Assembly: GCF_012027495.1 (NCBI RefSeq)
Contig: NZ_SNUK01000004.1
Coordinates: 62,001-126,000, forward strand
DNA length: 64,000 nucleotides
Source of the DNA: Thermococcus sp. JdF3
GTDB lineage: Archaea > Methanobacteriota_B > Thermococci > Thermococcales > Thermococcaceae
Direction: 5' to 3'
Positions 8,082 through 60,837 of this stretch are shown here, in pieces; positions within the stretch are counted from its first letter, which is position 1; every line of letters begins with the position of its first letter. The notes under the pieces are model-generated. The model made no database searches, was not told the origin of the DNA, and saw nothing but the letters and a program-made list of their open reading frames with translations. Made by a program: the position numbers and the translations under genes.

Positions 8082-8588
8082 AGTGGTATCTGGCCAGTAG
8101 GGGTTTATATCGGTTGCGTAAAGTTTAAGAACCGTTTTCCATGCCGAAAATCTACTCTGATGCACTTCTATGTCCATCATTATGGGGAAAGGCTTATAAA
8201 TGTTTGTCGTCGGTTCGATGTTTGAACTTTCTAAAAAACTGCCTGATGCCCGAGATCTGCTGTAATTTTGACTTTATTTATACCAGAATGATGGCATAAT
8301 GTGGCTGATTAACGGGTTCATCTGTCATATCTGGCCAAAATACGGGTAAAATGTGGTCAGTTTTTTGTGCGAAACAGTGGTCACTGGTGCTTTTAAATGT
8401 CCAATATAGCTTTAAAAGGCCTTGTATTGTGGATCAGAATGTTTTTCACCGCTCACAGTACGAACCCGCTTGAAAAACCGGTGTTTTGTTTGTGAGGGAA
8501 ACTTTTGAGAAAGGAGCTACGAACTTTGATTAAACTCTGCGGGACTGTCGTTCCCTGCGTCAGGCAAAGCCCGACGCCACGCAGCCGA
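8082..8588. other. AT-rich non-coding region upstream of the polymerase operon
   Basis: About 500 bases with no convincing gene. It holds several TATA-like sequences on both strands. The strongest is GGGGAAAGGCTTATAAATG near 8183-8201, readable as a plus-strand promoter for an unknown transcript or, reversed, as a distal promoter for rpoH. ATCTGGCCA occurs at about 8087 and again near 8326. From about 8490 the sequence starts to resemble the right arm of the tRNA-linked palindromes: the stretch GAGCTACGAACTTT recurs near 9714. Confidence 0.5.
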
Positions 8589-8766
8589 ACAAACTTTGCA
8601 GAGCAAAGTTTGACCAAAGAACACCCTTCTCAAAGAAAGGCAAAAATTAGTCGTGCACTAAAGAACTGGATAATTTTAAGCGGGATTTAACATAAAAGGA
8701 AGCTTTTCAGAGCAGTTTCAACTTACCATTGGCGCCTTTCGGGCGCCTTCTCAAAGAGAAACACTC
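8589..8766. repeat. Truncated copy of the tRNA-linked palindromic element
   Basis: The copy begins with a perfect 10-bp hairpin, CAAACTTTGC, loop AGA, then its complement (8589-8611), followed by GACCAAAG. GTGCAC lies 64 bases from the left end, as in the full elements (63-65). The central GC-rich hairpin GGCGCC, loop TTTCG, GGCGCC is at 8731-8747. The right arm stops after about 20 bases, where the next complete element begins, so half of this copy has been lost or replaced. Confidence 0.65.
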
Positions 8767-8772
8767 ACCAAG

Positions 8773-9070
8773 CAAGCTTTGCTTGGCAAAGCTTGACCAA
8801 AAATGTTTTGCTGGTTAAAAGCCTGAAAAAACTTCGTGCACTTTAAAACGGACGATTCTGTTGGGATTTACTCTTCTAATTGCCCTCTTGCGAGTGTTTC
8901 ACTCTTCAAACGGCGTCCGGACGCCACTAACAAGGTTAAAACTGCTTGATAGAAGATTATCCGAGAGCCAAACCCTGTTGAGACATGGAGTTAAAATATC
9001 GCACGACCTCAAGGGCACGGCACCAAACACAGTCAGAACTTTTTGATGAAACTTGCTTGCGCAAAGTTTC
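8773..9070. repeat. Complete palindromic element abutting tRNA-Ile2/Met
   Basis: An imperfect palindrome of about 298 bp centred on the 14-bp perfect palindrome GGCGTCCGGACGCC at 8912-8925. Both ends carry small hairpins: CAAGCTTTGC, loop TTG, complement at 8773-8795, and GAAACTTGC...GCAAAGTTTC at 9048-9070. Outer arms match when reversed; CGTGC at 8835 pairs with GCACG at 9001, and paired coordinates sum to about 17,840 throughout. Read on the minus strand, it begins 2 bases after the tRNA CCA at 9073. Confidence 0.75.
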
Positions 9071-9072
9071 AA

Positions 9073-9150
9073 TGGTGGGCCCGGGGGGCTTTGAACCCCC
9101 GACCACGCGGTTATGAGCCGCGCGCTCTGACCAGGCTGAGCTACGGGCCC
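9073..9150 (-). tRNA. tRNA with CAT anticodon, probably tRNA-Ile2
   Basis: A 78-base cloverleaf on the minus strand with 7-bp acceptor GGGCCCG/CGGGCCC, discriminator A and encoded CCA. The anticodon loop is CTCATAA, anticodon CAT. It is not the initiator, because it lacks the A1-U72 pair. Archaeal Ile2 tRNAs that receive agmatidine commonly have a GGGCCCG acceptor, so Ile2 is preferred over elongator Met. It lies 6 bases after tRNA-Asn and must be co-transcribed with it. Confidence 0.93.
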
Positions 9151-9373: not shown

Positions 9374-9450
9374 GCCCCGGTAGCCTAGCCTGGCGGGGCG
9401 GCGGACTTGTAATCCGCCGGTCGCGGGTTCAAATCCCGCCCGGGGCTCCA
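9374..9450 (+). tRNA. tRNA-Thr (TGT)
   Basis: A 77-base cloverleaf with acceptor GCCCCGG/CCGGGGC, discriminator T (usual for archaeal threonine tRNAs) and encoded CCA. The anticodon loop is CTTGTAA, anticodon TGT. It diverges from the Asn/Ile2 pair. Six bases after the CCA a perfect 9-bp hairpin opens the palindromic element that follows. Confidence 0.97.
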
Positions 9451-9456
9451 TTCTAA

Positions 9457-9752
9457 CAAACTTCGTCTTCGCGAAGTTTGATCAAGGTTCGTAGCCCCTT
9501 CTGGAAGTGTTAATTTTCAAGTGGTTTCTCATTATCGGAGCGTTTAACACGGAGAACAACTCTAAAATACTCCCGTACAAGGGGTTTGCTTTTTTGACGC
9601 CCTTCGGGCGTCTTTTGGAGTTAAACCCCTTCAACAGGAACACCAAAATGGTTCTCACCTGAAACGTTGGCCTTGAGTTGAGAAACCACCTTTCCAAAGT
9701 GCAACTTGGAGAAGAGCTACGAACTTTTCGTGAAACTTTTGGAAACGCTTTT
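9457..9752. repeat. Complete palindromic element abutting tRNA-Thr(TGT)
   Basis: About 296 bp. The left end is CAAACTTCG, a 6-base loop and its complement (9457-9480), then ATCAA. The centre is GACGCCC, loop TTC, GGGCGTC (9596-9612). Nested arms pair exactly: AAGGGGTTT 9579 with AAACCCCTT 9623; GTGGTTTCTCA 9521 with TGAGAAACCAC 9679; GTTCGTAGC 9487 with GCTACGAAC 9716. Paired coordinates sum to 19,210 or 19,211 except the innermost hairpin at 19,208. The right end near 9752 is weaker. No ORF or transposase is present. Confidence 0.8.
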
Positions 9753-47710: not shown

Positions 47711-47787
<77 letters not shown>

Positions 47788-47788
47788 A

Positions 47789-48089
47789 GAAACTTTGCCT
47801 TCGCAAAGTTTCACCAAAGCTTGTTATTGCTTTTCAAAGTATCTTCTTTTAGAGTGCACATTATTAAAAGGCTGATTCTAGTTGGATTTCCTTGTTTTTA
47901 ATAAGTTTTCACCGAGTCCCTCAAATACGACGCCCTACGGGCGTCAAAAAGAAAAATGGACTCAAAGTTTAGCGACAAATTTCAAGTGAAATCACTCTCT
48001 AAATGCTAAATTTGAATGTGCACCATTTAAACGGCCGATTCAAATAGCAATCACAAACTTTGGTCAAGCTTTGCAAGAACAAAGGTTGC
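47789..48089. repeat. Complete palindromic element abutting tRNA-Arg
   Basis: About 301 bp. The left end is a perfect 10-bp hairpin GAAACTTTGC, loop CTTC, complement (47789-47812), followed by ACCAAAG. The centre is GACGCCC, loop TAC, GGGCGTC (47929-47945). Arms pair symmetrically: GAGTCC 47914 with GGACTC 47958; GTGCACATT 47854 with AATGTGCAC 48015; GCAAAG 47803 with CTTTGC 48069. These paired coordinates all sum to 95,877. There is no ORF of note. Confidence 0.8.
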
Positions 48090-48167
48090 TGTACTCCCAA
48101 ACCCCCGATGAGGGGTTTCACCCCGCACCCCTAAAACTCCGGGGGGCTAACGCCCCCACACCCCCAG
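48090..48167. repeat. G-rich linker between two palindromic copies
   Basis: It contains a hairpin GGGGGC, TAAC, GCCCCC (48142-48157) followed by a C-rich run, then a GAAACTT start of the next copy. The same arrangement, with loop TACC, recurs at 60384-60409. Confidence 0.5.
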
Positions 48168-48545
48168 AAACTTGCTTCGCATGTCGAGACTTTCTTCTCA
48201 ACACGTCGGAAGCTTGTTTTTGGTCAAGCTTTGCTAAATCCTGCTCTGTGTTCTTAGATCCCAGAAGCGAATTTTCTGCAAAAGTTTGATCAAAAGGTCG
48301 TGATTCCTTTTCAACGTTAGTTTCTTGAGAACGATTTTAGGTTTAAACCCGCCGTTTGAATTCACACTGCGCTCCAAAGGAGCGCTAAAAATCTGAACCC
48401 TTCTCAAACGAACTACAAGAAACAGAATCCCGTTGACCGGTAAGGGTAATAGTGCTTGTTTCGGGAGTTGTTCTTCCCAGGCGGACATGTGTTGAGAAGG
48501 ACTCCAAAGAAAAGTGGTTGGGTGTCCGCCCAAAGGCGGACAAAG
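48168..48545. repeat. Longer, degraded palindromic element before rpl12
   Basis: It starts GAAACTTGCTTCGC, has the central hairpin GCGCTCC, AAA, GGAGCGC (48369-48385), and ends near an 8-bp hairpin TGTCCGCC, CAAA, complement (48523-48542), 14 bases after the rpl12 stop on the other strand. The 39-mer at 48276-48314 matches 60087-60125 at 36 of 39 positions. Arm pairing is weak, so this is a decayed or rearranged copy. Confidence 0.5.
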
Positions 48546-59992: not shown

Positions 59993-60069
59993 GCCCCGGT
60001 GGCTCAGCCTGGTGGAGCGGCCGCTTGGTAAGCGGCAGGCCGCGGGTTCAAACCCCGCCCGGGGCTCCA
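59993..60069 (+). tRNA. tRNA-Thr (GGT)
   Basis: A 77-base cloverleaf with acceptor GCCCCGG/CCGGGGC, discriminator T and encoded CCA. The anticodon loop is TTGGTAA, anticodon GGT. A palindromic element starts 5 bases after the CCA. Confidence 0.96.
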
Positions 60070-60074
60070 TTCTA

Positions 60075-60382
60075 CAAACTTTTGCTCTGCAAAAGTTTGA
60101 TCAAAAGTTTGTGATTCCTTTTGAAAAAAGCGTGCTTTGAGTGGATTTCTCTGAGGACTGCTTTTTGGGCGGAATTGATTCATTCCAAGGGGGTGTTCCA
60201 GGAGGGTTCAAGCGTTTTTGGCGCTCCTTCGGAGCGCGGTTCAAGTGAAACCCGCGTGAAAAAGTTTTATTTTCGATGACTCAACCTTCTAAAGGCCAAG
60301 TTTGGACTTGAAATCCCATCTGCAAATGAGCCTTAAAGGGAATCACAGACTTTTGGTCAAGCTTTGCGCAAGCAAAGGTTGC
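60075..60382. repeat. Complete palindromic element abutting tRNA-Thr(GGT)
   Basis: About 308 bp. The left end is a perfect 11-bp hairpin CAAACTTTTGC, loop TCT, complement (60075-60099), then ATCAAAAG. The centre is GCGCTCC, TTC, GGAGCGC (60221-60237). Arms pair at constant sum about 120,457: GTGATTCC 60111 with GGAATCAC 60339; GCAAAA 60089 with CTTTGC 60362. The right end aligns with that of the 47789 copy over about 43 bases with few differences. Confidence 0.8.
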
Positions 60383-60409: not shown

Positions 60410-60758
60410 GAAACTTTGCCCTGCAAAGTTTCACCAGCAAGCTTTAAGAAAGTTTGAGAAAGCTTGACTAAGAGGGTACCCTTTCCCGCATTTTTGAGAT
60501 GTTAGCCGTGCATGATTTGACTGTAGTTTTAACGAGGTTTAACTGTTGAACAGGGCCTCTTTAATGGTTCACTTCATTTTTAGCGTCCGAAGGACGCCTT
60601 GTGGAGAGTGGAACACTGCAAACTGTCAGTTGAGAACAAACCCCGTGAAAAACAAGCAACTTTCGGGATTGCACGCACTCTTCCGCCAGCGCTTCGTAGG
60701 AAGCGAAGCTTCCCGACGTGTTGAGGCAAAGCCTCAACATGCGGAGCAAAGGGCTGTT
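60410..60758. repeat. Longer palindromic element before tRNA-Pro
   Basis: It starts with a perfect 10-bp hairpin GAAACTTTGC, CCT, complement (60410-60432), has the centre GCGTCC, GAA, GGACGC (60583-60597), and ends near GTTGAGGC, AAA, GCCTCAAC (60720-60738), within 22 bases of the tRNA-Pro CCA on the opposite strand. Arm pairing is partial, e.g. ACGAGGTTT near 60532 with the reversed complement around 60640. So this copy lies between two tRNA 3' ends. Confidence 0.65.
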
Positions 60759-60759
60759 A

Positions 60760-60837
60760 TGGTGGGGCCGCCGGGATTCGAACCCGGGTCACGGGCTCCC
60801 AAAGCCCGCAGGATGGACCAGGCTACCCTACGGCCCC
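60760..60837 (-). tRNA. tRNA-Pro (TGG)
   Basis: A 78-base cloverleaf on the minus strand with acceptor GGGGCCG/CGGCCCC, discriminator A and encoded CCA. The anticodon loop is TTTGGGA, anticodon TGG. Confidence 0.96.

What the first reader, a model, noticed from the sequence alone, without database searches (positions are those of the whole stretch)
47789..48089. A family of about 300-bp imperfect palindromes with fixed internal plan
Seen directly: four full copies (8773-9070, 9457-9752, 47789-48089, 60075-60382) share terminal hairpin AAACTTTGC/GCAAAGTTT followed by AYCAA, arms that pair at constant coordinate sum, a GTGCAC-type box about 65 bases from one end in three copies, and a central GC-rich hairpin. 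In this copy GTGCACATT/AATGTGCAC, GAGTCC/GGACTC and GCAAAG/CTTTGC pairs all sum to 95,877. No ORF is carried. I do not recognise the family. Inference: a structured non-coding RNA, a MITE-like mobile element, or a DNA-structure or chromatin element.
Basis: partly seen in the sequence, partly recalled or inferred. Interest (0 to 1): 0.85.

Follow-up and report, generated by a model that had tools for sequence, protein, structure and literature searches.

The report
Palindromes that cap archaeal tRNA genes
A family of about 300-base DNA palindromes sits directly behind the last tRNA (or other small stable RNA) gene of many transcription units across the heat-loving archaeal family Thermococcaceae, apparently hopping or being copied from one such gene end to another, which makes it a previously unrecognised repeat family that may help explain why these chromosomes break and flip at tRNA genes.

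Summary
The palindromes are real, and four is an undercount. Each starts 3-7 nt after the CCA end of a tRNA gene, always in the same orientation. At least 16 of the 44 tRNA genes of the source genome carry one. A diagnostic end motif occurs in 57 of 61 species of the genus, and in some other genera of the family. Elements also follow C/D-box sRNAs and H/ACA-like RNAs. They follow the last RNA of a transcription unit (99 of 100 sampled). There are three left-end types (A, B, C) plus modular hairpins. At one tRNA-Arg site with conserved flanking genes, different species carry different types or a solo hairpin. Near-identical copies (86-92%) occur behind unlike tRNAs. The arms covary over 270 bp, but G-T and A-C mismatches are equally frequent and central-loop orientation is symmetric, so pairing looks DNA-level, not RNA-selected. 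No ORF, no Rfam match, no linked transposase found; no description in the open literature searched. Best reading: a transposase-less, MITE/REP-BIME-like inverted-repeat family aimed at 3' ends of stable-RNA genes, whose tRNA-facing hairpin plus pyrimidine tract may replace the terminator. A neighbouring tRNA-Pro gene is inverted between species exactly where such elements lie.

The parts
47711..47786 (+). tRNA-Arg(TCG), the gene capped by the element
   Evidence: ARAGORN; Rfam RF00005
47789..48089 (+). A-type palindromic element, full copy named in the finding
   Evidence: sequence; palindrome scan; DNA fold z -4.9, RNA fold z -6.4
47789..47812 (+). tRNA-facing terminal hairpin GAAACTTTGC-CTTC-GCAAAGTTTC
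   Evidence: G-C to C-G swap of the outermost stem pair among 42 copies (24 CG, 17 GC, 1 TC)
47929..47945 (.). central GC-rich hairpin GACGCCC-TAC-GGGCGTC
   Evidence: covarying in the family, helix 4
9374..9450 (+). tRNA-Thr(TGT)
9457..9752 (+). A-type palindromic element behind tRNA-Thr(TGT)
9073..9150 (-). tRNA-Met
8766..9071 (-). A-type element behind tRNA-Met, degenerate (weakest palindrome of the four)
59993..60069 (+). tRNA-Thr(GGT)
60075..60382 (+). A-type palindromic element behind tRNA-Thr(GGT)
60760..60837 (-). tRNA-Pro(TGG), convergent with tRNA-Thr(GGT); on the opposite strand in other species
60411..60756 (-). B-type element (CAGCCC...GCGCTGGCGGAAG left end with extra hairpins, A-like right end) behind tRNA-Pro(TGG)
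   Evidence: sequence; classification
48281..48434 (+). decayed A-type copy (GTGATTCC / GCGCTCC subfamily) in the same convergent gap before ribosomal protein genes
   Evidence: direct repeat D6; weak palindrome

Best explanation
It is a genus-wide family of non-coding inverted-repeat DNA elements that target the 3' end of the last stable-RNA gene (tRNA, C/D or H/ACA sRNA) of a transcription unit. SHOWN: location 3-7 nt after CCA, fixed orientation, modular end types, matched ends, turnover at one orthologous site, similar copies behind unlike tRNAs, strand-symmetric (DNA-like) pairing. INFERRED: the element is copied from site to site by a trans-acting recombinase or by recombination between tRNA/element sequences; its tRNA-facing hairpin and following pyrimidine tract replace the displaced tRNA terminator, which is why insertion there is tolerated; the inverted copies then promote local flips of tRNA genes.
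For: Distance to CCA 3-7 nt in 70 of 74 A-type and 3 nt in 15 of 21 B-type cases. Unbiased samples chosen by tRNA, not by element: own genome 16 of 44 tRNAs; tRNA-Arg(TCG) 27 of 30 species, tRNA-Thr(GGT) 20 of 30. The end motif hits 57 of 61 species, reversed-pattern control 0. Elements follow terminal RNAs 99:1, against 41:14 for element-less tRNAs; at tRNA-Thr(GGT) none of 9 species with a same-strand tRNA next has one, 20 of 21 others do (Fisher p = 7e-7). C/D sRNA upstream in L095 and L083. Turnover at the syntenic Arg locus. Copies 86-92% alike over about 300 nt behind different tRNAs, divergence setting in at the right-hand hairpin. Matched ends AGC/GCT, GAT/ATC, GGT/ACC 270 bp apart, with 16-19 both-side changes per pair and nearly no one-sided intermediates. 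Left hairpin is AAAC-type in 42 of 42 while right ends are AAGC-type in 30 of 42, so orientation is fixed. Pyrimidine tract sits 30-45 nt into A elements but 0-15 nt behind element-less tRNAs.
Against: No transposase, no flanking target duplication and no clean empty-versus-filled junction was found. Identity between copies is mosaic (one half 100%, other half about 85-88%), which gene conversion explains as well as transposition. Some sites are plainly inherited vertically (tRNA-Val(TAC) 98% between species). Terminator activity is inferred from base composition only.
Confidence: 0.58

Rival explanations
1. Host-owned bidirectional terminator cassettes: not mobile, kept because they end stable-RNA transcription and separate convergent units, and homogenised by gene conversion between tRNA 3' flanks.
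For: Almost always behind the last RNA of a unit; hairpin plus pyrimidine tract facing the gene, T-rich left arm and A-rich right arm so both entering strands read T-rich; half-element identity tracts, one of them reaching into the tRNA.
Against: Different end types (A, B, C) replace one another at one site; most of the 300-bp body is not needed for termination; many tRNAs do without; a related genus (g3, 9 genomes) has none of the end motif.
Confidence: 0.25
2. A structured non-coding RNA co-transcribed with the tRNA.
For: RNA fold z -5.8 to -7.3 for three copies; long-range covariation.
Against: G-T equals A-C mismatches; central loop orientation symmetric; both strands fold beyond shuffles to a similar degree; no Rfam match.
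Confidence: 0.08
3. Debris of tyrosine-recombinase integrations into tRNA genes (attachment-site remnants).
For: Integrases use tRNA genes as attachment sites (PMC8371274); one copy lies beside an integrase gene and a tRNA-His 3' fragment (L035).
Against: Elements also follow C/D and H/ACA-like RNAs; no attachment-core duplication seen; the family keeps a defined 300-bp plan; in L035 the element is most simply read as having stayed with the original tRNA 3' end.
Confidence: 0.05

Closest known systems
MITEs (non-autonomous transposon derivatives with terminal inverted repeats)
   Same: Short, ORF-less, dispersed, matched inverted ends, copies at unrelated sites
   Different: No parent transposase or target duplication found; orientation-fixed position behind stable-RNA genes; whole length palindromic with hairpins at the ends
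REP / BIME / REPIN elements of bacteria
   Same: Intergenic, at 3' ends of transcription units, hairpins combined as mosaics, inverted pairs
   Different: REP units are 20-40 bp (PMC3733652); here a 300-bp unit locked to tRNA/sRNA ends; the Y1 transposase family that moves REPs is in only 15 of 61 genomes and its loci lack these ends
Archaeal T-rich transcription terminators
   Same: Pyrimidine/T tract shortly after the RNA
   Different: Far longer, palindromic, repeated family with subfamilies
tRNA-gene integration sites and IntpTN3-linked inversions in Thermococcus (PMC5495485)
   Same: tRNA loci as recombination points; that paper maps large inversion borders to oppositely oriented tRNA pairs
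   Different: The word palindrome does not occur in that paper; its integrase did not recombine the unlike Leu/Thr pair in vitro

Membership tests
MITE | Terminal inverted repeats matched within a copy | tested here: met
   three matched end variants
MITE | No coding capacity | tested here: met
MITE | Parent transposase sharing the ends | tested here: inconclusive
   Only Y1 transposases tested, their loci lack the ends; other transposase families not tested
MITE | Target-site duplication or clean empty site | tested here: inconclusive
   No obvious duplication in pairwise alignments; syntenic loci too diverged for exact junctions
REP/BIME | 20-40 bp unit moved by a Y1 (RAYT) transposase | tested here: not met
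   Unit about 300 bp; Y1 in 15 of 61 genomes against elements in 57 of 61
REP/BIME | Mosaic of hairpin modules at 3' ends of transcription units | tested here: met
Structured non-coding RNA | Pairing kept with G-U tolerated over A-C on the transcribed strand | tested here: not met
   196 v 176; 75 v 71
Structured non-coding RNA | Stable transcript | not testable with these tools
   No RNA-seq available
Intrinsic terminator | T or pyrimidine tract behind the gene | tested here: met
   30-45 nt bin
Intrinsic terminator | Transcripts end there | not testable with these tools
   needs Term-seq

The most novel reading that the evidence does not exclude
The first transposable-element-like family known to aim at the 3' ends of stable-RNA transcription units in archaea, abundant in a genus described as nearly free of transposable elements, and the inverted homology that lets unlike tRNA loci recombine, flipping single tRNA genes and perhaps whole chromosome arms.
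Probability: 0.3. Interest if true: 0.82.

Novelty: new variant of a known kind. Interest (0 to 1): 0.68.

Why it matters
Thermococcus is described as having few or no transposable elements, yet its chromosomes rearrange fast with borders at tRNA gene pairs (PMC5495485, PMC8371274). A 300-bp inverted-repeat family capping over a third of the tRNA genes in the source genome supplies repeated homology at such borders, and makes the question testable in the genetically tractable T. kodakarensis. It also poses a clear targeting puzzle: what recognises the end of a stable-RNA gene.

Tried and rejected
Rfam search of window and loci: only tRNAs, C/D sRNAs and sub-threshold hits. Y1 transposase as mover: wrong distribution and no shared ends. 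Plasmid carriage: no match. Viral contigs: one match inside what reads as coding sequence of a contig with no tRNA, judged chance. Named-genome scan returned only two contigs of one Thermococcales MAG, so species names are not available. RNA selection by G-U excess: rejected. Literature for palindromes or repeats behind tRNAs in Thermococcus: nothing in the open library; subscription papers are not covered. Labels of a few loci (L069-L073) were shifted by one genome in the nearest-copy script; the conclusions do not depend on them.

Full report
OBSERVATION. The four copies exist at the stated places and pair at a constant coordinate sum. A Watson-Crick-only gapped palindrome scan scores them 28, 25, 24 and 16; 240 shuffled chunks of 2.8 kb gave mostly 9-13 and at most 16. 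Three copies fold far better than dinucleotide shuffles (z about -6 to -7), the fourth weakly (-2.6). The fourth is nevertheless a family member by its end sequence and position.

Every copy abuts a tRNA 3' end. Fetching the flanks of all 44 tRNA genes of the source genome showed 12 A-type and 4 B-type left ends directly behind tRNAs. The source assembly also has one copy behind an H/ACA-like RNA (L042; identified by eye from its hairpins and ACA end, Rfam silent) and one behind a tRNA-His 3' fragment next to a tyrosine recombinase (L035).

DISTRIBUTION. A left-end motif with one mismatch allowed is found in 57 of 61 genomes of the genus, up to 34 per genome, while the reversed control finds none. 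With two mismatches it occurs in 4 of 6 genera of the order, not in g3 (9 genomes) or g6 (1 genome). Type A and C left ends also lie behind tRNA-Arg genes of g5, and type A behind tRNA-His of g2.

POSITION AND ORIENTATION. A-type elements begin 3-7 nt after CCA in 70 of 74 cases; B-type 3 nt after in 15 of 21. In three genomes sampled by motif rather than by tRNA, 21 of 58 motif hits lie right behind a tRNA on the same strand; many of the rest are the opposite ends or tandem copies. C/D-box sRNAs precede copies in L095 (E = 2.6e-5) and L083 (E = 0.004). Elements follow the last RNA of a unit: 99 to 1. At tRNA-Thr(GGT), nine species have a tRNA-Pro next on the same strand and none of these has an element behind tRNA-Thr, whereas in six of those nine the element follows the tRNA-Pro; 20 of the other 21 species have one behind tRNA-Thr. 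The tRNA-facing hairpin is always the AAAC type (42 of 42), though the distal hairpin is the AAGC type in 30 of 42, so insertion or retention is orientation-specific.

ANATOMY. Left hairpin, then ATCAA, then GTRRYTCC, a pyrimidine tract, a body, a GC-rich central hairpin, and the mirror image. Ends come in matched versions (GTAGCTCC/GGAGCTAC, GTGATTCC/GGAATCAC, GTGGTTCC/GGAACCAC) with 16-19 both-side changes at each of three pairs 270 bp apart and almost no intermediates. The chosen structure pairs 82.5% of cells against 35-44% when slid by 1-3 columns. This control is favourable to a structure drawn from the same sequences, but the both-side changes are not explained by that. Relatedness within subfamilies inflates counts; three independent end states is the safe reading.

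DNA OR RNA. On the transcribed strand G-T and A-C mismatches are equally common (196 v 176; 75 v 71), and central loops read TTC/GAA 14/11 and AAA/TTT 8/7. RNA selection would favour G-U over A-C. I therefore read the pairing as inverted-repeat identity at the DNA level. Weakness: part of the arms align poorly, which dilutes the first test towards equality; the second, on fixed columns, gives the same answer.

MOBILITY OR EXCHANGE. At tRNA-Arg(TCG), nine species share the flanking genes on both sides, yet the gap holds a solo hairpin (L130), a truncated copy (L128), A (L115, L131), B (L118), C plus fragments (L116, L129) or mixtures. Copies 86-92% identical over about 300 nt sit behind different tRNAs, with identity ending at the right hairpin. 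Identity is often mosaic by half, so gene conversion contributes. No mover was found.

tRNA FLIP. In G027, G028 and G017 tRNA-Pro(TGG) lies 27-28 nt behind tRNA-Thr on the same strand; in the window genome it is inverted, with the same sequence downstream in the same orientation (80% identity), and the gap is filled by an A and a B element. This is a local inversion of one tRNA gene at an element-filled gap; cause and direction are not shown. It fits published inversion borders at oppositely oriented tRNA pairs (PMC5495485).

TERMINATION. Element-less tRNAs have a pyrimidine tract within 15 nt; A-type elements have it 30-45 nt in, after the hairpin. That suggests, but does not prove, that the element supplies the terminator it displaced.

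VERDICT. Real, genus-wide and, in the open literature I could search, undescribed. Closest kinds are MITEs and REP/BIMEs; membership in either is not established.

Noticed in passing
window 60760-60837 (tRNA-Pro) and loci L174, L184, L189, L201: tRNA-Pro(TGG) is on opposite strands in different species between conserved neighbours, a local inversion of one tRNA gene.
   Followed up: partly
window 48100-48166, L116, L129, L177, L191: A third, GC-rich module (CAACGAAAGACAAGGGGGC...CCCCC, and GGGGGGCTAACGCCCCCACACCCCC) occurs directly behind tRNAs or between elements.
   Followed up: no
window 8513-8765: Remnants of one or two further elements (right end GGAGCTACGAACTTTGATTAAAC and a left hairpin near 8590-8612) beside the 8766-9071 copy.
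   Followed up: no
L035:134-1057 and 1100-1160: Tyrosine recombinase gene next to a tRNA-His 3' fragment followed by element sequence: probably an old integration.
   Followed up: partly
L101:748-830: An element follows what looks like a tRNA 3' half that ARAGORN does not call, possibly another integration remnant.
   Followed up: no
L075, L086, L196 and window 60690-60756: Left hairpins with extra GC-rich hairpins inserted in the loop (CGTCGAGC...GCTCGACG, GGGACG...GTCCC), as if hairpins can be nested.
   Followed up: no
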